Positions 13,683-23,625 of a DNA stretch of 29,623 bases are shown piece after piece. This stretch comes from a virus: positions 1 to 29,623 of IMG/VR virus record IMGVR_UViG_3300025120_000344. The stretch is one strand, 5' to 3'. The notes under the pieces are model-generated. The model saw only the letters and a list, made by a program, of their open reading frames with translations. It searched no databases and was not told where the DNA came from. Positions within the stretch are counted from its first letter, which is position 1; each line of letters starts with the position of its first letter. The position numbers and the translations under genes were made by a program.

Positions 13683-15059
13683 TTAAAAACCTATTTTATT
13701 GCCTACATTTATATTGGTATTTGTTTTTACATTGTCAATACTTGTATTTAGTTTTTGTGCAAAAATTTCATATATCGTGTCGGCCTCAACCCTTTTACCC
13801 TCTTCCTCTTTAATGTTTTGTATTTTTGTTTTTGCCCCAGCTTCATCTAAAATATCAAAAGCTTTGTCTGGGAATTTTTTAGTAGGTAAATATTCTGAAC
13901 ACAAGTCAATAACTTTTTTAATAATTGATGGAGTGAATTTTATATTGTGAAATTTTTCATATGAAAGTTTAGCTTTTTTCATTAGAGTTAAAGTTTCTTC
14001 TTTGCTTGGCTCTAACACATCTATCTTTTCAAAACGACGATTTAGGGCAGAGTCTGTTTTAAAGTATTTGTCGTACTCATCTTTTGTTGTAGCCCCAATA
14101 CAAGCAAATCCACCTCTAGATAGGACTGGTTTTAAGCTATTAGCTAAGTCTAAACCACCCTCAGAATTTCCTGCTCCGACAATCGTGTGTATTTCATCAA
14201 TAAACAAAACATATTCATCGCTACTAGATATTTCATCTATTATGGATTTTACCTTTTCTTCCATTTGACCACGATACATTGTGCCAGCTAAAACAGAAGT
14301 CATGTCTAAAGAAAGTATTTTTTTGTTTAATAAGAATTTGGGGCATTTTTTTTGTAGTATATTTTCAGTTAACCCTTCCACAATGGCAGTTTTGCCAACA
14401 CCAGCTTCTCCAACTAAAATAACATTGCTTTTGTTTTTTCTTAAAAGAATTTCGAAAGTTCTATTTATTTCTTTTTCTCTACCAAAAATTTCAAACGTCC
14501 CACGTTCTTTGATGGTTTTGTTCATGTTTTCGCACCAATCACCTATATCTTGTTTTGGTTTTTGTTGATTTTGCACATTGTTGCTTGGAATAGGGGGAGG
14601 TGTGGAGTAATCTATTCCGTATTTAATTGTGTATAAAAGAGACGCACATAATTTTATAACATCAACTTCAAGACCTATAAAGAAAGCTCTTAATTCTTTT
14701 CTTGTTTGTAATATAGATATAAAAATATGATCGACTCCTATAAATTGATCTTCATTTTTATCTGCTGTTTTTTGGGCTTCGTCTAAAATGTCGAATATTT
14801 CTGGAGCAAATATTTTCTTTTTTCTTTTTGGCTCTTTGTATCTTTCCAATACTAAAAGTATAGACTCAGAAAAACCTTCCTTTAAAAGACCATTAGACTC
14901 CATGCAAAAATCAATATTGGCATGATTCAAACAAAGCACGGAATAAATCAAATGGACGTCTATCACTTTTAAGTGGCCATGCTCCTCCGCTATGTCTTGA
15001 GCTTGCACTAAAGCATTTTTAGCCGAAGGTGTTAAATTATAATTTGAAAAATCACTCAT
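13683..15059 (-). CDS. Single-ring Clp ATPase (ClpA/B/C D1-type AAA+ unfoldase)
   Basis: A 458-residue protein. Residues ~1-145 resemble the Clp N domain (LTPSAKNALVQAQDIAEEHG; DQFIGVDHIFISIL). A D1-type AAA+ module follows: Walker A GEAGVGKT (217-224), pore-loop MYRG (261-264), Walker B VLFIDEIH (284-291), sensor GATT (322-325) and arginine fingers R341/R342, then the small lid ending near DILDEAGAKTKI. Cellular ClpA/B/C carry a second AAA ring and are about 750-860 residues; this protein stops after the first. Its last residues are KIGF; IGF/IGL is the tripeptide with which ClpX/ClpA dock on ClpP, though it normally lies in a loop. ATP-driven unfolding is likely; a link to host ClpP is speculative. 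It is coupled to the polymerase gene by ATGA. Confidence 0.9.
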   Translation of the reverse strand: MSDFSNYNLTPSAKNALVQAQDIAEEHGHLKVIDVHLIYSVLCLNHANIDFCMESNGLLKEGFSESILLVLERYKEPKRKKKIFAPEIFDILDEAQKTADKNEDQFIGVDHIFISILQTRKELRAFFIGLEVDVIKLCASLLYTIKYGIDYSTPPPIPSNNVQNQQKPKQDIGDWCENMNKTIKERGTFEIFGREKEINRTFEILLRKNKSNVILVGEAGVGKTAIVEGLTENILQKKCPKFLLNKKILSLDMTSVLAGTMYRGQMEEKVKSIIDEISSSDEYVLFIDEIHTIVGAGNSEGGLDLANSLKPVLSRGGFACIGATTKDEYDKYFKTDSALNRRFEKIDVLEPSKEETLTLMKKAKLSYEKFHNIKFTPSIIKKVIDLCSEYLPTKKFPDKAFDILDEAGAKTKIQNIKEEEGKRVEADTIYEIFAQKLNTSIDNVKTNTNINVGNKIGF

Positions 15060-17632
15060 TTTATTTCGGATAATCTTGTATAGATTTTTTCGTCCAGGAT
15101 ATTTATTTTTTCTCCGAATATTATATCATCACCCTTACTGCCATATATAAATACAATCTGCCCTTCTTTAGGTTTTTTACCACCTCTCTCTAAGTAAATG
15201 TCTAGCGCGGCAGATCTTCTGTTATTGGCCATCATAAATTTAATTTTTCCATAATCATCCTGTATTTCGACCATCATATATTTGTTTCCAGCCCTACTTT
15301 TTCTTGACACACAATCTGTCACAACTCCGACAAACTTTACACGGTCGTTAAGATCAACGGACTTTAATTCCAATGTGTTTACTAAGTTTTTAGTCTCTTT
15401 AAAAACTTTTTTAATTTCATTAGAATGACTATATCCCAAATACTTGCGTTCAAAGTACCAGTTAGCGAAAACTAAATGCTCTTTATTTTTGTCATAAATT
15501 TGACGGTACTTATCGTAATCTCTTTTGAAAGTTTTAAATCTAGAGTCTTTCATTAGTGGCTTAGAGTCATCTCCTGGATAGTTTTCTTTTTTAACGTAAG
15601 CAATAGAATTAAGAATGTCGTAATCAAGTCTATCGCCTAAACTAATAAAGTTTCTTTTTTCTCTGTCTGTCAGAAGGTTAAATGCTTGAGCCTCTAAGAC
15701 TAGACGGCATCTGTTTGGAACACCATCAACAAAATTACAGAAAGAGTCCATCATTCCGCCTTGTATTAAGCCAGATACAATACCAATATTGATACCAGAT
15801 TGTTTAGCTGAAACAAAAACATCATATTTGGTTTGTTGCAGTAATTCAGATTTTCTAAACTCAACTAAGTTTTCTAATGTTTTTTCAGAAACACCTTTTA
15901 TACTGTTAATTCCATAACGAATGTTTTTATCCTCAATAGAAAACTCAACGTCAGACTTGGATAAATCTGGTGGCAAAAGCTTCATATCAAAGAGACAGAG
16001 CTCTTGGCTAATTAAAGAAATTTCTGCATGAGAATCTGGTTCATGCTTTGTCATTTTAAGCAGTGATAAAAAGAACTCTTTGGAATGATTAAATTTCAAG
16101 TATGTTGTTATCGCAGCTAATGTAGCGTAGCTAATTGAGTGTGATTTATTAAAAGAATAATTAGCTGAATCTTCTGCCACCTTCCATAAAACGTCACCGA
16201 CCTGTTTTGGTAAATCTTTTTCTTCTACTTTTTCTTCAATCTTAGCTTTCCAAGCTGGCATTAAATCTACTTTCTTTTTGCCGACAATCCTTCTTAGTTG
16301 TTCCGCTTCATCTAATGTAAAACCAACTTTAACAGCCATTTGCATTAACTGCTCTTGGTATAAAGGTATCCCGCCAGTATACGAAAGTATATCATCAAAG
16401 AACTCATGCACAGAACTGAAAACACCAGTCTTTACATAGCTAGCGTACGTGTCTAAGTAATCAAGAGCACCAGGACGAGCAATAGCGACAACAGCAGACA
16501 GTTCTTCAAGGTTCCTGGGAGCAATTTTCCTAGCTGCCTTAAAGTTTGTGTCCGCTTCAATCTGGAAGAGACCTTTTGGTGCCTCAATGAATTTGAAATT
16601 TTCATATATATCTGTTGATTCGACATCTATAGTTTCTACCTTTTTACCTAATTGCTGAAGTGTATCATAAACAACAGATAAAGTTCTTAGACCTAAAATA
16701 TCGAACTTAACCATCAAAGATGCCACATCATTCATATCATACCCCGAAACATAATTGCCATCGTTTGTTTTTTGCATTGGCATTACCTCGTCGATATTAT
16801 AGAAACTAATCGCAATCCCCGATGGGTGAACGCCAGTGTTCTTATTTAATCCTTCTAGTTTTCTGGCTATTTTAAATACTTTTGGGTTGTCATCACAAAA
16901 CTTTTTAAGTTTTTCGCTTTCATCGTAAGCTTTATTTAACTTAAATACCTTACCGAACTGCTTTGGAATAGAGGCGCTAATATCATTAACATCTTCCTCT
17001 GAAAAACCCCCTACGATCTTACCGCACTCCTTTACACACAATTTGCTACTCAATGTGTTGAGAGTTAAAATTTTACATGTTTTACCTTTATGCTTATCTT
17101 CGATATATTTGATTACCTCGGCTCTTCTATCGTAACTGATGTCATTGTCCACGTCAGCCAACAAAGAGCCGTCTAGGTACGTTATATCGTCAACAATGGT
17201 CTTTTTAGCTCTGCTCTTAGATACAAATCGCTCAAAAAAGAGATTATACTGAATTGGATCAATATTTGTTACTTTTAATAAATATAATACCAAAGAACCT
17301 GCGGCAGAGCCTCTACCTGGGCCAGTTGGTATGTCGTTTTCGTGACAAAAATTAAGAATATCCCAATTTAGAAGTATGTAATCAATAAAACCAAGCTCTT
17401 GCAAGACGGTTAATTCCATTTTCACACGATCGTAATACTCTTGTTTGTTCTTGAGCTTATATATTTCTCTTTGTTGCACACCTTTCAAACATAATTCACG
17501 CAACAAGTCATAATTAGACGAGGTATTTGATATGTTTAACTCGTCATAAAAGCGTTGTTCTACCTCAATTTCTGGTAGTCTAACGCCAACTGGCATAGGT
17601 GTTTTAAAGGATTTTAAATTTGCTAAAGACAT
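15056..17632 (-). CDS. dnaE: DNA polymerase III alpha subunit, polymerase part (DnaE-type, PHP domain encoded separately)
   Basis: An 858-residue replicative polymerase without its N-terminal PHP domain (bacterial DnaE is about 1160). Palm and catalytic features are intact: GPGRGSAAGS (104-113), D160 and D162 in LADVDNDI (the PDIDVDF site), ARKLEGLNKNTGVHPSGI, and D311 in VKFDILGLRTL. Fingers and beta-binding regions show YQEQLMQMAVKVGF, LRRIVGKKK and NYSFNKSHSISYA. Near the C-terminus ERKYLGYSHS matches the E..LG.YLS.HP pattern, and ~765-850 is an OB fold. It should extend phage DNA, using the separately encoded PHP protein (19390-20085) and exonuclease (18803-19432). The start overlaps the coiled-coil gene by 29 bases. 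I see no intein sequence at the break. Confidence 0.95.
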   Translation of the reverse strand: MSLANLKSFKTPMPVGVRLPEIEVEQRFYDELNISNTSSNYDLLRELCLKGVQQREIYKLKNKQEYYDRVKMELTVLQELGFIDYILLNWDILNFCHENDIPTGPGRGSAAGSLVLYLLKVTNIDPIQYNLFFERFVSKSRAKKTIVDDITYLDGSLLADVDNDISYDRRAEVIKYIEDKHKGKTCKILTLNTLSSKLCVKECGKIVGGFSEEDVNDISASIPKQFGKVFKLNKAYDESEKLKKFCDDNPKVFKIARKLEGLNKNTGVHPSGIAISFYNIDEVMPMQKTNDGNYVSGYDMNDVASLMVKFDILGLRTLSVVYDTLQQLGKKVETIDVESTDIYENFKFIEAPKGLFQIEADTNFKAARKIAPRNLEELSAVVAIARPGALDYLDTYASYVKTGVFSSVHEFFDDILSYTGGIPLYQEQLMQMAVKVGFTLDEAEQLRRIVGKKKVDLMPAWKAKIEEKVEEKDLPKQVGDVLWKVAEDSANYSFNKSHSISYATLAAITTYLKFNHSKEFFLSLLKMTKHEPDSHAEISLISQELCLFDMKLLPPDLSKSDVEFSIEDKNIRYGINSIKGVSEKTLENLVEFRKSELLQQTKYDVFVSAKQSGINIGIVSGLIQGGMMDSFCNFVDGVPNRCRLVLEAQAFNLLTDREKRNFISLGDRLDYDILNSIAYVKKENYPGDDSKPLMKDSRFKTFKRDYDKYRQIYDKNKEHLVFANWYFERKYLGYSHSNEIKKVFKETKNLVNTLELKSVDLNDRVKFVGVVTDCVSRKSRAGNKYMMVEIQDDYGKIKFMMANNRRSAALDIYLERGGKKPKEGQIVFIYGSKGDDIIFGEKINILDEKIYTRLSEIK

Positions 17633-18806
17633 CTTTGATTTTTTGTAGTATAGATTTTTTCTTTGTTACTATATCTGTATCCTTATGATACTTTTCTTTC
17701 TCTTTGTCAAGTTTAATTTCAAACTTTTTGATTAGGTTGTTCTTCTCTGTCTCAAAATTGTTTTTAATTTCCTCTATGTGTTTTTGATGATGTGAATTTT
17801 TCTCTACTATTTTTGTGGAGAAATCGTTATCTCTTTTGTATTTATCCAATACTTTTAGTTGATTAATTTCTGATTCAAATTTAGCTTTTAAGGATTTTAT
17901 TTCTAAGTCTTTAAATTTAGAATCATCCTTTTGAGCGCTTAAAAGTTTTAAATTGATATCTTTTTCTTTAGCTAACTCTTTTTTAAAGTGCTCTTTTCTT
18001 TCTTCTATAAACTCAATGTCTCCCAATAGTTGATCTATCGTGTCAGAGAGCTTACCAATTCTTTCTTCATTCGTCTTGATACATTTCGATGAGTTTGATA
18101 AAGTGTCGGTATATTTTTTTTTTCGCTTTTCAAATTCTAGCTTTTGGTCTTCTAGAGCTTTGTCTTTCTCTTTTAAAGCTTCTTCTTTCTCTTCGGCTAG
18201 TTTTTGTTTTTCTTCAAATACTTTTTCTTCTATTTGTTTTTGCTCTTCCTCGAATTTTAATTTTGCAGATACTAACTTTTCTCTAAAGATGTTTGTGGCA
18301 GATTCTAAGGAATCTTGCATTTCCTTTAAAGTCTTAGATTGTTCTTTCGATTGATTCTTTTGGTCTCCAATTAAAGATTCTTTGTCTGATTCGTGAGACG
18401 AAAGAGCTTCTTTTAAATTAAATTCATGTCTTCTTTGTAGCTCTTTAATGTTTATGTTTACTTTTTTAACTTCGATACAATTAGCTTTTGCTAAAGAACC
18501 GTTTTGAAAAGTAGCTTCGAACTCTATAATAATATTGTTAGAGATTGTGCTTATTTTTATTTCACCATTAAGCGATTCAGAGGCCCAATCTACCTCTCCC
18601 TCTCTAGACATTAAGATTCCAGATTCATTAATTTTATAGGTAAGATTAGAATTATTTAGGTTTTCAGTTTGAAACAAATTGGTTTGTTCAATGTCTGCGA
18701 GCATTTCACGAGGTAGGACAAATGAACCCCACTGAACTAAATGCATAAAGCGATCTGGTCTTTCAATAATAATTGAGTTAAAATTTGATGTAAAATCTAT
18801 ATTCAT
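17604..18806 (-). CDS. Long coiled-coil protein in the replication operon
   Basis: About 400 residues. The first ~115 form a beta-rich globular domain (FMHLVQWGSFVLPREM, EGEVDWASESLNGEIKI, NIIIEFEATF). Residues ~120-390 are an almost continuous heptad-rich coiled coil full of Glu and Lys (for example EEEQKQIEEKVFEEKQKLAE), ending in a basic tail (KIKDVFSKFKIL). There are no Walker motifs, so it is not a complete SMC/SbcC ATPase. I take the ATG at 18806 because it overlaps the exonuclease TGA as ATGA; an ATG at 18821 would add five residues. Lying between the exonuclease and polymerase genes and overlapping both, it may be a structural or tethering part of the replisome, but this is inferred from position only. 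Confidence 0.7.
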   Translation of the reverse strand: MNIDFTSNFNSIIIERPDRFMHLVQWGSFVLPREMLADIEQTNLFQTENLNNSNLTYKINESGILMSREGEVDWASESLNGEIKISTISNNIIIEFEATFQNGSLAKANCIEVKKVNINIKELQRRHEFNLKEALSSHESDKESLIGDQKNQSKEQSKTLKEMQDSLESATNIFREKLVSAKLKFEEEQKQIEEKVFEEKQKLAEEKEEALKEKDKALEDQKLEFEKRKKKYTDTLSNSSKCIKTNEERIGKLSDTIDQLLGDIEFIEERKEHFKKELAKEKDINLKLLSAQKDDSKFKDLEIKSLKAKFESEINQLKVLDKYKRDNDFSTKIVEKNSHHQKHIEEIKNNFETEKNNLIKKFEIKLDKEKEKYHKDTDIVTKKKSILQKIKDVFSKFKIL

Positions 18807-19432
18807 ATTTCTAATTCCCATATTTGTTTTTGAAAAATATCAAAGTTCTTTTCTATGTCGTATAAGGCATCATGGAGTTTATTTTCGTCAAAGTCAATAT
18901 TATAATGTTGTAATAGATGTTTTTGATTTGTTTTTAAACCGCGTCTTCTAAAATTTAAGTATCGCATTTGCCAAGCAAGAAGATCATCTTCTGGTTTTCT
19001 ATTATCTTCCGCAATAGCTTTAGCCAAAATATTTGTATCTAAAAGTTGACCAATAAAGTTTTCGTGATTTAATCTTTGACCTATTTTTCTAGCCCAAATA
19101 CCCAAGATGTAAATATCATAACCAAGGATATTATGACCAAGGATAATATTATTGCCATACAAAACTTTTTCAAAATCTGCCCAAACAACCTTTGGATCTT
19201 CTGCAACAGATTCGTAATAAGCCCTATCGAATCCAGTGACTCGAGCAGCATCTGGTGAAACGTTTAGATCGTCCCATTTAATAAAGCGATTATGTTTCTT
19301 GATAACCTTTTTGCCTTCACACTCAATCCAAGCTATTTGCCAAGGTTTAGAGGTGATTAAATTTAACCCCTCTGTTTCGGTATCGAAAATTATATAGCGC
19401 TGTTTAAAGTTGTATCTGAGTAAGTCTTCCAT
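18803..19432 (-). CDS. DEDDh 3'-5' exonuclease (DnaQ-like proofreading subunit)
   Basis: A 209-residue enzyme with all DEDDh motifs: Exo I IIFDTETEGL (D17, E19), Exo II LGHNILGYDIYIL (D106), Exo III HDALYDIEKN (H187, D192). This family removes mispaired 3' nucleotides; bacterial DnaQ binds the PHP region of DnaE. Here the gene sits between the separately encoded PHP domain (overlap 43 bases) and, after the coiled-coil gene, the polymerase part. The exonuclease plus PHP plus polymerase set recalls the contents of Gram-positive PolC, but on separate chains. Proofreading is the most likely role. No clamp-binding motif is evident. Confidence 0.92.
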   Translation of the reverse strand: MEDLLRYNFKQRYIIFDTETEGLNLITSKPWQIAWIECEGKKVIKKHNRFIKWDDLNVSPDAARVTGFDRAYYESVAEDPKVVWADFEKVLYGNNIILGHNILGYDIYILGIWARKIGQRLNHENFIGQLLDTNILAKAIAEDNRKPEDDLLAWQMRYLNFRRRGLKTNQKHLLQHYNIDFDENKLHDALYDIEKNFDIFQKQIWELEI

Positions 19433-20085
19433 GATTCAAAGCAAAATTCATCACTACCAAAGTGATCTAGTCCAGGGTTTGATAGATCGTAAGTTCTACC
19501 TATCCTGCGGTTACAAATTAATTTATAAGTCTGAAAAGCCAAAACATCTTCTTTGTTTTCGTAGTATATTGACTTACCATAAAAATGCTGATTTGGATTG
19601 TTTTTGCAATAGCTTAATATTTTATCTCCGATTAAACAATCGAACGGTAGATTGTTATCCTCAAGCATAAAAGGAACATCAAACGGCAAATCAATAACAC
19701 AGTTAGAAAAGGTCGTTAAATTCTTGTGTAAAAAAGAATCGTAAAAAGGCACTATATACTGTAACTCTTTAGTAAAGTCCCAAGGTTTTGAAATTTTAAT
19801 GTCAGACTGCTCTGTGAATAACCTATATAATTCTTTTGCCCCCGCATCTCCATTGGCGAATGCAATCATTTTACTTTCAGATTCTTGGTTTCCATCTTCG
19901 TTGTACATGGAAAATCTTAAACCAAACCGCAACCTATCTCCAAATTTCCTAAACGCTTCTGGAAAGCCTGTCATACTGTCTTCAATGAAATAAACTTCAT
20001 CAAAGTCTTTTGTTAGTTCGTAGACATCATCTATGCGTAAAATGCTTTTACCGATAGATGCATGTGTTTTAAAGAATGGTATCAT
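19390..20085 (-). CDS. Separately encoded PHP domain of DNA polymerase III alpha
   Basis: A 231-residue protein matching the N-terminal part of DnaE. It begins IPFFKTHASIGKSILRIDDV (the LH.HS.YS...G region), continues with YFIEDSMTGFPEAFRKFGDR and LRFGLRFSM (the A.TDH..L.G...F....GIKPI.G.E region) and KMIAFANGDAGAKELYRLF (the L.LLA.N..GY.NL.KL region). It ends with SIYYENKEDVLAFQTYKLIC and the FESW stretch, which correspond to the DnaE region just before the palm. The usual metal-binding His cluster is largely missing, so it is probably structural, bridging polymerase and exonuclease. A good promoter lies directly upstream, so it may head the polymerase transcript. The separated polymerase part is at 15056-17632. 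Confidence 0.8.
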   Translation of the reverse strand: MIPFFKTHASIGKSILRIDDVYELTKDFDEVYFIEDSMTGFPEAFRKFGDRLRFGLRFSMYNEDGNQESESKMIAFANGDAGAKELYRLFTEQSDIKISKPWDFTKELQYIVPFYDSFLHKNLTTFSNCVIDLPFDVPFMLEDNNLPFDCLIGDKILSYCKNNPNQHFYGKSIYYENKEDVLAFQTYKLICNRRIGRTYDLSNPGLDHFGSDEFCFESWKTYSDTTLNSAI

Positions 20086-20102: not shown

Positions 20103-20119
20103 TAATTTTAATTTGTCAA
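20092..20119 (-). promoter_or_regulatory. Putative sigma70-type promoter of the polymerase III (PHP) gene
   Basis: On the - strand TTGACA (20119-20114), a 16-base spacer and TATATT (20097-20092) form a near-consensus promoter. The -35 lies within the last codons of the upstream nuclease gene. The -10 ends 6 bases before the ATG at 20085, implying a leaderless message unless GGTGA acts as a ribosome-binding site. Confidence 0.6.
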
Positions 20120-21103
20120 GTGTTTTGGACAACCTTTATAATATTTAATTGAATGGCTACCGCCTTCTGGAACAATACTTTTATCAAAATCATCTTGAAA
20201 GGATGACATTATGTGTTCTCCTAGGTGGTTTAACACTTCTACATAAAAAAAATCAAACTTAAACGGACAATGCCACATTTTTGTTCCGTCTTTCTTGAGT
20301 TGATTTTTTTCTTTGGCAAACCCACACTGCAATTTGCCGCTAAATGTTCCATCGTCTGGAAAACCTTTGTCATATGCAAAACTGCTTTTAGCATCAGACT
20401 CGCTAAAATTTTCTAAATAGTTTTGTATATTTTCTAACTGCATTTCAAAGCCTTCTAAATCATCCTCGTCTAGTGGCTTCATTTTCATTAAGCCTTTTTT
20501 CTTTAGATCAAACTTTAAAAACAAAAATTCTGCATTTCTGTTTACATATTCTGGGAATAAATGTTTTACAGCTAAACAGTACATGTAGTCTTGAAGGTTA
20601 TCATCTTTTTCTTTACCCTCAAACATCTTCTTGCTTGTTTTGTAATCTCTTATGATAGCGATTTTTTTTTCTTTGTATAAAAACAGTTGGTCAATAAACC
20701 CACGAATGTGGTAACCATTTTTTTCTATATCAAAATCTAATTCTGCATGAGCTTCATCTGGGACACCCAAATCTTCTCCGTGAAAATTACAACTCAAACC
20801 ATTGAGAATCATTTGTTTGATAAGGTTCATATTATCCTCGTCCGTGACTCCAAGTTCAGTAGCATCAGACATAATTAAATCTTCAACAGCCTTCGATGCA
20901 AACGGATCTTTAGCTTTAACTATTTTGTTAAATTGATTTTTGGTTTTTTGTTTAGATAAATGCTCAAAAACATTATGGCACACGGTACCTCTTCTGGCGC
21001 CGTCATTGCCTCGCTCTGGCAACTTTAATTTATATTTTGACCAATATAACCAACTGCAAGATTGAGCTGTTTTTATACGACTTGCTGATAATTTAACTTC
21101 CAT
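20108..21103 (-). CDS. Cas4/RecB-like PD-(D/E)XK nuclease with a probable iron-sulfur cluster
   Basis: A 331-residue protein. It opens LSASRIKTAQSCSWLYWSKY, typical of the AddB/Cas4/RecB nuclease family, then RGTVCHNVFEHL. The catalytic core is GFIDQLFLY followed by AIIRDYKTSKKM (the GxxD ... DYKT motif), with the later LQDYMYCLAV matching the Q...Y motif. One cysteine near the N-terminus (C16) and three near the C-terminus (LQCGF, WHCPF, KGCPK) match the four-Cys pattern that holds a [4Fe-4S] cluster in Cas4 and AddB. Such enzymes process DNA ends; in phages they are usually replication or recombination exonucleases. It overlaps the primase stop by 11 bases and there is no CRISPR context. 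Confidence 0.88.
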   Translation of the reverse strand: MEVKLSASRIKTAQSCSWLYWSKYKLKLPERGNDGARRGTVCHNVFEHLSKQKTKNQFNKIVKAKDPFASKAVEDLIMSDATELGVTDEDNMNLIKQMILNGLSCNFHGEDLGVPDEAHAELDFDIEKNGYHIRGFIDQLFLYKEKKIAIIRDYKTSKKMFEGKEKDDNLQDYMYCLAVKHLFPEYVNRNAEFLFLKFDLKKKGLMKMKPLDEDDLEGFEMQLENIQNYLENFSESDAKSSFAYDKGFPDDGTFSGKLQCGFAKEKNQLKKDGTKMWHCPFKFDFFYVEVLNHLGEHIMSSFQDDFDKSIVPEGGSHSIKYYKGCPKHLTN

Positions 21104-22118
21104 CTAAAATTTTTAAAAGTTTTTTACAATTACCGTTCTTGAGCAGAACCTTGTTTGTCTTAATTTGATTAACTATCCAATCTTGGGTTTTTTTGTCTCC
21201 CAAATTCCACTTACATTTTCTCTTATACCAATCTGAGAAGATATTAATATTAGAAGAATTTGATTCCAACATGTCGCCGAAATCATTCATGAGGGGCGGA
21301 TTAATGCATATTTGATTTAAATCGTATATTTGAGCTAATTTTGCTGCAGTTTTAATGGTAGCTTGGCCACCAGAGTTCATTTGTTTCTCTTGGTCGTTGT
21401 TCATTGATATAATGACACGCTCTAGATTAAAACTATTTATAAAAGAGATGAGCTTAGAAGATGCGTCTAAACCGAAAGCCACTAATACATTATGAAAGCC
21501 AGCTTCATGTAAAGCTAAACAGTCGCCTATACTTTCTACTATAATAACTTCTTTGTCTGTTTCTATAAGGTGATTTGGAAATATCCAATCTGTTTTTCTT
21601 CCCATGTGTTTCCATTTGGGTATGCCATCTCCCTCTAACACTGTACGTCCAGAAAAGCCGTGTATTTGGCCGTTTAAATTGTAAATTGGGAAAACCATCC
21701 TGCGGTACATTTTACCACTACCTGCGTACCCACATTTAAACTTTTTCTGAGTATCGCTAGATATATTCTTTTTTTCATAGAAATTTCTAATTGGCAATAA
21801 TTTATCCAAATAAGATTCGGGGTATATTTTTTCCATTTCTATTTTTTCTATTTTAGGTTCACTATTAACCTCTTGTGGCAAAGAATTTAAATATTCTGCA
21901 AGAACTTTTGGATTATCAGTTTTTAATGTTTCTCTAACCAAAGCTGAAAAAGGTTTAGCTTGATCGTCTAAACCAAAATCTTTCCAAACTCCAGAGTCTT
22001 TATATATTATAATAGCGGTTTTGTTTTTTCCACTTCTATATACAGCTCTAGTTCTCCAATGAGAACCACAATCTTGTAATTGGTATCCCAATTTTTCTAA
22101 TGTATCCTTATAGGTCAT
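21093..22118 (-). CDS. DnaG-like TOPRIM primase
   Basis: About 341 residues. The N-terminal ~60 residues (GYQLQDCGSHWRTRAVYRSG, then SGVWKDFG) resemble a CHC2-type domain that has lost its zinc cysteines. The middle has KFKCGYAG and RRMVFPIYNLNGQIHGFSGR, the DnaG core signature. The TOPRIM fold follows: VIIVESIGDCLALHEAGFHN with the catalytic Glu, then ISMNNDQ, where the first Asp of the usual DxD is Asn while the second is present, and GGQATIKTAAKL. It would make RNA primers for the adjacent helicase. Bacterial DnaG is nearly 600 residues, so this is a compact form without a long C-terminal helicase-interacting domain. I use the ATG at 22118; a TTG sits one codon upstream. It overlaps the helicase gene by 11 bases. 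Confidence 0.88.
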   Translation of the reverse strand: MTYKDTLEKLGYQLQDCGSHWRTRAVYRSGKNKTAIIIYKDSGVWKDFGLDDQAKPFSALVRETLKTDNPKVLAEYLNSLPQEVNSEPKIEKIEMEKIYPESYLDKLLPIRNFYEKKNISSDTQKKFKCGYAGSGKMYRRMVFPIYNLNGQIHGFSGRTVLEGDGIPKWKHMGRKTDWIFPNHLIETDKEVIIVESIGDCLALHEAGFHNVLVAFGLDASSKLISFINSFNLERVIISMNNDQEKQMNSGGQATIKTAAKLAQIYDLNQICINPPLMNDFGDMLESNSSNINIFSDWYKRKCKWNLGDKKTQDWIVNQIKTNKVLLKNGNCKKLLKILDGS

Positions 22119-23625
22119 CAAAAGAAGGCAAATCTGATTGTGTGTTAATTAAATCTCCGCCAGAGTTTCTAAAAGAGACGATATCTCTTAAGTCTCCGCA
22201 TTCAGTGATGTTGAAGTTTTTAAAATGCAAGTTGATAAAATTCTTTCGTAAATTATCGTCTACTTGAACTGGTTCAACTGCACCTGCAATATCTTTACCT
22301 AAATGTCTAGACTTTACGTTTATTAATTTATGAGTACCAAAGGAAGATCCATCGTCAGCAATCTCATCTGTAGTTTTTTGACGCAAGATAAACATATGAG
22401 AACAGAATTGGGTGATTCTATCTGATAAAGAAACGATAGATTCATCGTCAACAATGTTTTGCGCATTTCTGTTTGTTGTGATGCCACTACGATTTGATTG
22501 AACAGACGTTATCATTGGTATAACTGGAGCGCCATCTTCTAGTATTTCTTTTTGAATACATTTTTTAAACTTATCTACCATTTCACCAACCAACTGCCAC
22601 TCGTTTTTGTTTCCACTTATTCCATCTGAAGATGTTTTAATATAATCAAAAGAGAAAATCATCTTGTTGCCGCGACCGACTTGTGAAAAGTAAAATCTTT
22701 TAAGAGTGTTGATCATTGAATCTACATCCATTCCCCCGACATTATAATAATAAAATTTAAGTTTACTTATTTTAGACCAAACAGAACGCACTTTCTTTAC
22801 AACGTCATCTCCAGCTTGTCTCCATTTGCCGCTTTCTAATAGATGGGAAGCTACTCCCGATATTGCCGCGCACTGTCTAATAATCAACTCTTCTTTGCTC
22901 ATCTCTCCATTATCAAAATGTAATACAGGCACATCGTATTTTAACGCAACTTTTGTTGCATAGTCCATGCAAAATTGTGTTTTACCAACACCAGAGCGAG
23001 CCACTATAACAGTTATGTTGCCTGGCCTAAGAAGAGAGCCATATATGTCATTAATTTTTTCATGAGGGCCAAACATGCCAAATTCTTCAACTGGGTTGTT
23101 ACCTCTGTCTTCGATGAAACTCTCCATCTCGTCATAAATATTTTGTGGGACATCATCCCCCACTTCAAAAAGATTAATCTGATCATTATAAGTTTTGTCT
23201 GCTAATTCAATTATTTCTAAATATGGCACGTCCGTATTCAATGATTTCATTTGCTCTGTGATTTTTTGACCAGTAGCAGATATTTCTCTTCTAACGCTTA
23301 GTTTTTTAAGCTCTTTTATAGAGCTTTCTATCTTGTCGTCGGAATGTATTTTCCTCATTGATAAAGACCTAACATAATCTAGGATGTTTATATCTTCCTC
23401 GAACTTAATCCCAAGATCTTGAATCCTTTGAACAATAATCACATCATCAATGTTTTCGTTCTTTTCCAAAGACTTGCTTAAGATTAGAAACAAAGTTTTA
23501 TGTAACAATGAGTTTTTATCGTAGAAGTCTTTCTGATTTAAGACATTTAGATAATTAATAAATATCTTTGGTTTTTGCAAAAAGGCCGCTAAAACCTGCT
23601 TTTCAATTTCGTAACTATAAATCAT
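22108..23625 (-). CDS. DnaB-like replicative DNA helicase
   Basis: A 505-residue hexameric-type helicase. The N-terminal domain begins EKQVLAAFLQKPKIFINYL, typical of DnaB. The RecA-like motor has Walker A VARSGVGKTQF (~204-214), HFDNGEMSKEELIIRQCAA (motif 1a, as in DnaB SLEM...L..R), Walker B MIFSFDYIK, and ITSVQSNRSG and RITQFCSHMF near the remaining motifs. It unwinds DNA ahead of the polymerase and recruits the primase encoded just downstream. It is the first gene of the leftward replication run, with a TTGACT promoter candidate upstream and GGGG five bases before the ATG, one of the few plausible ribosome-binding sites here. Confidence 0.93.
   Translation of the reverse strand: MIYSYEIEKQVLAAFLQKPKIFINYLNVLNQKDFYDKNSLLHKTLFLILSKSLEKNENIDDVIIVQRIQDLGIKFEEDINILDYVRSLSMRKIHSDDKIESSIKELKKLSVRREISATGQKITEQMKSLNTDVPYLEIIELADKTYNDQINLFEVGDDVPQNIYDEMESFIEDRGNNPVEEFGMFGPHEKINDIYGSLLRPGNITVIVARSGVGKTQFCMDYATKVALKYDVPVLHFDNGEMSKEELIIRQCAAISGVASHLLESGKWRQAGDDVVKKVRSVWSKISKLKFYYYNVGGMDVDSMINTLKRFYFSQVGRGNKMIFSFDYIKTSSDGISGNKNEWQLVGEMVDKFKKCIQKEILEDGAPVIPMITSVQSNRSGITTNRNAQNIVDDESIVSLSDRITQFCSHMFILRQKTTDEIADDGSSFGTHKLINVKSRHLGKDIAGAVEPVQVDDNLRKNFINLHFKNFNITECGDLRDIVSFRNSGGDLINTQSDLPSFDDL

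What the first reader, a model, noticed from the sequence alone, without database searches (positions are those of the whole stretch)
15056..20085. DNA polymerase III alpha is split into PHP and polymerase genes, with an exonuclease and a coiled-coil gene between
The 231-residue protein at 19390-20085 matches the PHP part of DnaE and ends where the palm region begins; the 858-residue protein at 15056-17632 resumes there and keeps all three catalytic Asp residues (D160, D162, D311). The DEDDh exonuclease and a ~400-residue coiled-coil protein lie between, in overlapping frames. The cut falls at a natural domain boundary and no intein sequence is visible, unlike the known cyanobacterial split DnaE, which is broken further downstream and joined by an intein. 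The PHP protein may act as a bridge between polymerase and exonuclease.
Basis: partly seen in the sequence, partly recalled or inferred. Interest (0 to 1): 0.78.

Follow-up and report, generated by a model that had tools for sequence, protein, structure and literature searches.

The report
Phage replicase with detached PHP subunit
In a large group of uncultured, mostly aquatic phages, the DNA-copying enzyme that is normally one long protein is made as separate pieces: a PHP domain without its metal site, a proofreading exonuclease, and the polymerase itself, which suggests a replicase assembled from parts.

Summary
The 231-aa protein (19390-20085) is a DnaE-type PHP domain. Its family profile hits the Taq DnaE PHP (E 5e-9), its predicted fold matches only DnaE/PolC, and it aligns just upstream of where the 858-aa polymerase resumes. 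The cut lies between E. coli DnaE residues ~236 and ~287; the helix that joins PHP to palm is missing from both proteins. In 183 loci (130 distinct), PHP, DEDDh exonuclease and polymerase are three separate genes on one strand in the order PHP-exo-pol. None is fused, and the same search does find fused DnaE in bacteria and other phages. The split polymerases form one clade. All nine PHP metal-ligand positions are replaced in 131 PHP proteins, whereas the DEDDh residues (133/133) and three polymerase aspartates (121/121) never vary. Two corrections: the coiled-coil gene is optional cargo, absent from close relatives; and the 'bridge' idea is untested, since the exonuclease lacks an epsilon-like C-terminal tail. 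No intein lies at the PHP/pol cut, but three relatives have a split intein inside the polymerase. Split phage DnaEs cut elsewhere are known, so this is a new variant of a known kind.

The parts
19390..20085 (-). Stand-alone DnaE PHP domain protein, 231 aa; none of the nine PHP metal ligands kept by alignment
   Evidence: profile and fold match to DnaE PHP; ligand positions; split in 130 distinct loci
18803..19432 (-). DEDDh 3'-5' exonuclease, 209 aa, no C-terminal tail; overlaps the PHP gene by 43 nt
   Evidence: RNase_T E 1e-13; DnaQ/PolC exonuclease chains; D17, E19, D106, H187, D192 invariant in 133 sequences
17604..18821 (-). 405-aa protein, partly coiled coil, between exo and pol; optional cargo, not a core part
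   Evidence: present, shortened or absent among close relatives
15056..17632 (-). PHP-less Pol III alpha (DnaE) polymerase, 858 aa: palm, fingers, HhH, OB; catalytic D160, D162, D311
20108..21103 (-). Conserved neighbour upstream of PHP: PD-(D/E)XK nuclease
   Evidence: PDDEXK_1 E 4e-18; conserved position
21093..22121 (-). Conserved neighbour: DnaG-like primase
   Evidence: phrog_47 DNA primase E 1e-23
22108..23625 (-). Conserved neighbour: DnaB-like helicase
   Evidence: phrog_19 E 4e-39
13683..15059 (-). Conserved neighbour downstream of pol: Clp-like AAA+ ATPase, 458 aa (about 800 aa in many relatives)
   Evidence: (phrog_4871 E 1e-101)

Best explanation
This is a phage-encoded C-family (DnaE-like) replicase whose catalytic subunit underwent fission, most likely once, at the PHP/palm junction in the ancestor of a large uncultured phage clade. 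It is made as separate proteins: a PHP domain that has lost its metal site, the polymerase proper, and a strictly conserved DEDDh exonuclease encoded between them. Shown: the three separate genes, their conserved order, loss of the PHP metal ligands, retention of the polymerase and exonuclease active sites, and absence of a fused or second alpha subunit in the records searched. Inferred: the PHP protein docks non-covalently on the polymerase in the place of the covalent domain and acts as a structural and exonuclease-recruiting subunit, while proofreading is done by the DEDDh protein, giving a three-part alpha-epsilon-like core.
For: Separate genes in the order PHP-exo-pol on one strand in 130/130 distinct loci, 0 fused; fused bacterial and phage DnaE are detected by the same profiles. 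Profile alignment puts PHP at E. coli DnaE 14-236 and POL at 287-1055. Fold match to DnaE PHP, including the E. coli alpha-epsilon chimera 4gx8/4gx9. One clade with 100% branch support. PHP ligand positions replaced by fixed residues such as K, K, D, R, K, S, Y; DEDDh and Pol Asp residues invariant. Exactly one PF07733 match in each of 24 larger relatives. Precedent: the PHP domain of DnaE binds the proofreading subunit (PMC3919608).
Against: No physical interaction is shown. The co-variation test was too shallow (about 35 effective sequences) and gave no clear signal. The exonuclease lacks the C-terminal tail by which E. coli epsilon holds PHP, so any contact must be of another kind. All large relatives are linear records of unknown completeness, so an unseen second alpha subunit cannot be fully excluded. 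PHP metal ligands of E. coli DnaE are also partly lost, so ligand loss does not depend on fission.
Confidence: 0.72

Rival explanations
1. The detached PHP protein no longer belongs to the polymerase: it has become a separate factor (for example binding the nuclease, primase or a host protein), and POL plus exonuclease work alone.
For: POL lacks the joining helix and models well on its own (pLDDT 87); PHP metal ligands are gone; genes are inserted between PHP and exo in 42 of 130 loci.
Against: Where contigs reach far enough PHP is found with the same two partners in the same order; its DnaE-PHP fold and core motifs are kept.
Confidence: 0.15
2. The pieces are joined after or during translation, by trans-splicing or by programmed frameshifting through the overlapping genes, to give a continuous PHP-exo-pol or PHP-pol chain.
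For: Overlaps of 4 to 56 nt are common, and split inteins do exist in the polymerase gene of three relatives.
Against: No intein half seen at the PHP C-terminus or the POL N-terminus (9-33 variable residues before GVRLPEI among the common lengths); overlap length and frame vary; 53 of 130 loci have no PHP/exo overlap and 42 have an insert between them.
Confidence: 0.04
3. Ordinary gene fission, perhaps by mobile-nuclease insertion, with no functional meaning; the parts simply reassemble and nothing about proofreading changed.
For: Split phage DnaEs with other cut points exist (PMC7824862); nuclease-like and other genes sit between the parts in some loci.
Against: The cut is fixed clade-wide, the joining helix is gone, and most PHP ligands have been replaced by a conserved residue, which points to long settled use. 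It does not contradict the best explanation, only its importance.
Confidence: 0.25

Closest known systems
Bacterial DnaE / Pol III alpha with PHP domain and separate epsilon (E. coli)
   Same: PHP and palm/fingers/HhH/OB order; PHP without a complete metal site; proofreading by a separate DEDDh protein
   Different: There PHP and polymerase are one chain; epsilon has a C-terminal tail that binds PHP. Here PHP is a separate gene, the joining helix is missing and the exonuclease has no such tail; no tau-binding C-terminal region is seen in POL (alignment ends at E. coli 1055 of 1160)
PolC
   Same: A DEDDh exonuclease lies between PHP and polymerase elements
   Different: In PolC all are one chain and the exonuclease is inserted inside PHP; here they are three genes, and POL is nearer DnaE than PolC
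Cyanobacterial DnaE split by a split intein
   Same: DnaE made from two genes; three relatives of the window carry a split intein close to that site (FNK|SHS)
   Different: The PHP/pol cut studied here is further upstream and has no intein
Split DnaE of cultured phages (Cellulophaga phi13:1 and phiST, Rossellomorea phiT1)
   Same: Phage DnaE encoded as two genes
   Different: Cut inside the polymerase (about POL position 140, or 322), with PHP kept on the N-terminal piece
Split minimal Pol III alpha of jumbo phage group 2.2 (PMC7824862)
   Same: Phage Pol III alpha in separate proteins
   Different: That form is a minimal catalytic pair without other Pol III domains, accompanied by a family B polymerase and encoded by distant genes

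Membership tests
C-family DNA polymerase, DnaE type (polymerase protein) | Pol III alpha palm and fingers domains | tested here: met
   PF07733 E 7e-63, PF17657 E 6e-27; Taq DnaE E 1e-86; fold E 4e-39
C-family DNA polymerase, DnaE type (polymerase protein) | Three catalytic aspartates | tested here: met
   D160, D162, D311 in 121/121 sequences
C-family DNA polymerase, DnaE type (polymerase protein) | N-terminal PHP domain on the same chain | tested here: not met
   POL begins shortly before GVRLPEI; PHP is a separate gene in 130/130 distinct loci
C-family DNA polymerase, DnaE type (polymerase protein) | Beta-clamp binding motif and tau-binding C-terminal domain | not tested
   Profile alignment stops at E. 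coli 1055 of 1160; motif not examined
DnaE PHP domain (231-aa protein) | Sequence homology to DnaE PHP | tested here: met
   Profile vs Taq DnaE E 5e-9; PF02811 over cut-off in 12/24 relatives
DnaE PHP domain (231-aa protein) | PHP fold | tested here: met
   AF2 pLDDT 85; top 20 PDB hits all DnaE or PolC, TM to query up to 0.75
Active PHP exonuclease | Nine metal ligands HHDHEH[C/H]DH | tested here: not met
   All nine positions replaced or absent in the 131 clade sequences by alignment; the first HxH position is alignment-sensitive, as a two-residue shift would keep one His
DEDDh exonuclease | D, E, D, H, D catalytic residues | tested here: met
   Invariant in 133/133 sequences
Epsilon (DnaQ) subunit of E. 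coli type | C-terminal tail that binds alpha PHP | tested here: not met
   Only 17-18 residues follow the last catalytic Asp in all 133 sequences
Intein-split DnaE | Intein halves at the break | tested here: not met
   None seen at the PHP/pol cut; present inside POL in L118, L198, L204 only
Three-part replicase core | Physical complex of PHP, POL and exonuclease | not testable with these tools
   No complex prediction available; co-variation test inconclusive

The most novel reading that the evidence does not exclude
A C-family replicase core with an obligate, non-covalently bound PHP subunit: the PHP domain, stripped of its metal site, has become a separate assembly or exchange subunit that recruits a tail-less DEDDh exonuclease to the polymerase, a subunit architecture not described for any DnaE or PolC in the literature searched.
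Probability: 0.45. Interest if true: 0.68.

Novelty: new variant of a known kind. Interest (0 to 1): 0.56.

Why it matters
The role of the PHP domain in replicases that no longer use its metal site is an open question: exonuclease anchor, scaffold, or relic. A natural clade in which PHP is a free protein lets that be tested by leaving it out or swapping it, without cutting a covalent enzyme. It also shows where a bacterial-type replicase can be taken apart and still serve a lineage.

Tried and rejected
Sequencing error or a local frameshift: rejected, as the same layout holds in 130 distinct loci. A second, complete alpha subunit elsewhere: not seen in 24 larger relatives. Intein at the PHP/pol break: no motifs. 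Programmed frameshift fusion: overlap and frame vary, and whole genes intervene in many loci. The coiled-coil gene as a core part: rejected by presence and absence among relatives. Cultured relatives: none close; best tblastn identity for POL about 32% and no hit for the window PHP protein. Stand-alone DnaE PHP in known viruses: the BFVD search gave fused or N-terminal-half DnaEs, plus one weak 175-aa PHP protein. Co-variation between PHP, exo and POL: about 35 effective sequences, inconclusive. A careful ML tree did not finish; the quick tree was used. The literature searches found no description of a PHP/pol gene split, but subscription papers are not held.

Full report
What was claimed. The open reading frames are exactly where it said, all on the minus strand. 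In transcription order they are PHP 19390-20085 (231 aa), exonuclease 18803-19432 (209 aa), coiled-coil 17604-18821 (405 aa) and polymerase 15056-17632 (858 aa). Overlaps are 43, 19 and 29 nt. The window is a 29.6-kb virus record; a longer contig with an identical polymerase and PHP protein is 84.8 kb.

The polymerase. Pfam gives Pol III alpha palm (PF07733, E 7e-63), fingers (PF17657), HhH and a sub-threshold OB match, and no PHP. It aligns to Taq DnaE 385-948 at E 1e-86, and its model (pLDDT 87) matches DnaE structures first and PolC next. D160, D162 and D311 are invariant in 121 distinct sequences.

The PHP protein. Alone it matches nothing in Pfam and nothing credible in the PDB by sequence. 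A profile of 29 relatives matches Taq DnaE residues 94-252 at E 5e-9, and PolC more weakly. The predicted structure (pLDDT 85, pTM 0.83) finds only DnaE and PolC among its 20 PDB hits at E<=0.001, including the E. coli alpha-epsilon chimera. PF02811 passes its cut-off in 12 of 24 larger relatives, in ORFs of the split gene's size. Profile-profile alignment puts PHP at E. coli DnaE 14-236 and POL at 287-1055, so the two proteins are complementary. The helix that follows the SEEEM-like motif in DnaE (IPEALANTVEIAKRC in E. coli) is in neither protein. The break is thus a settled domain boundary, not merely a stop codon in a linker.

How general it is. Scans of IMG/VR and of genome contigs gave relatives with 46-100% polymerase identity. 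In 183 loci, 130 of them distinct, PHP, exonuclease and polymerase are three genes on one strand in that order, without exception. No fused form occurs in the clade, while the same profiles detect PHP and polymerase on one chain in bacterial DnaE and in phages outside the clade. Each of 24 larger relatives has exactly one PF07733 match. In a quick maximum-likelihood tree the split polymerases form one clade with 100% branch support and a long stem, which fits a single fission. Cultured phages are distant: the best polymerase identity is about 32% and the window PHP protein has no hit.

Active sites. By alignment to an intact bacterial PHP, all nine ligand positions (HHDHEHCDH) are absent or replaced in 131 clade sequences, several by fixed residues (K 120/131, D 126/131, R 119/131, K 129/131). 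One caveat: shifting the first motif by two residues would keep a single His. By contrast, all five DEDDh residues are invariant in 133 exonucleases. Proofreading therefore most likely rests with the DEDDh protein (inference). E. coli epsilon binds PHP through its C-terminal segment (PMC3919608). Here the exonuclease ends 17-18 residues after its last catalytic Asp in every sequence, so that tether is absent and any recruitment through PHP would need another surface.

The gene between. The coiled-coil gene is optional. Relatives with 89-93% identical polymerases have exo and pol overlapping by 19 nt with nothing between; others have shorter relatives of the gene. Elsewhere in the clade the gaps hold nuclease-like, SET-domain, cupin, radical-SAM-like or other proteins, judged by eye from sequence.

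Inteins. No intein half is visible at the PHP/pol break. Three relatives (L118, L198, L204) do have a polymerase broken at FNK|SHS by what reads as a split intein: an N-half that begins with Cys directly after FNK, and a C-half ending VTSN before Ser. In L204 a nuclease-like ORF lies between the halves. By general knowledge of the cyanobacterial DnaE intein, whose C-extein begins CFNKSHS, this is three residues downstream of that site. In those phages the alpha subunit is encoded in three pieces, besides the exonuclease.

Mechanism. Most likely PHP docks on POL non-covalently and the DEDDh protein proofreads, giving a three-part core. The separate genes, order and residue patterns are shown; the complex is inferred. 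A co-variation test had only about 35 effective sequences and was inconclusive.

Novelty. Split phage Pol III alpha is not new: Cellulophaga and Rossellomorea phages are cut inside the polymerase with PHP kept on the first piece, and jumbo phages have a split minimal form (PMC7824862). A clade-wide cut exactly between PHP and palm, with loss of the joining helix and the metal site, was not found in the papers or structure libraries searched. I rate it a new variant of a known kind.

Noticed in passing
L118:9614-12598, L204:3989-7873, L198:3980-6863: Apparent split inteins inside the polymerase of three relatives at FNK|SHS, close to the cyanobacterial DnaE intein site; in L204 a nuclease-like ORF lies between the halves, as in fractured genes.
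   Followed up: partly
L118:4822-7545: A ribonucleotide-reductase-like protein that appears to carry an intein (CVTGDQRVV ... GIVTSNC).
   Followed up: no
L212 and L218 (contigs of a Lokiarchaeota MAG): DnaE-like genes broken at nearly the same position (about POL 321-343) as in Rossellomorea phage phiT1, in a MAG labelled as an archaeon; probably binned viral contigs.
   Followed up: no
L046:7989-9344: A PHP protein of 451 aa with a C-terminal extension of about 200 aa that looks nuclease-like.
   Followed up: no
L018:8713-9282, L020:8719-9282, L073:6791-7324, L074:6797-7336, L083:6833-7354: SET-domain-like proteins encoded between PHP and exonuclease in several relatives (judged by eye).
   Followed up: no
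window 13683-15059: The Clp-like AAA+ gene is 458 aa here but about 800 aa in many relatives, so the C-terminal AAA module seems to be missing.
   Followed up: no
L019:7021-9619: Polymerase broken into 148- and 731-aa overlapping frames, which may be a frameshift or assembly error.
   Followed up: no
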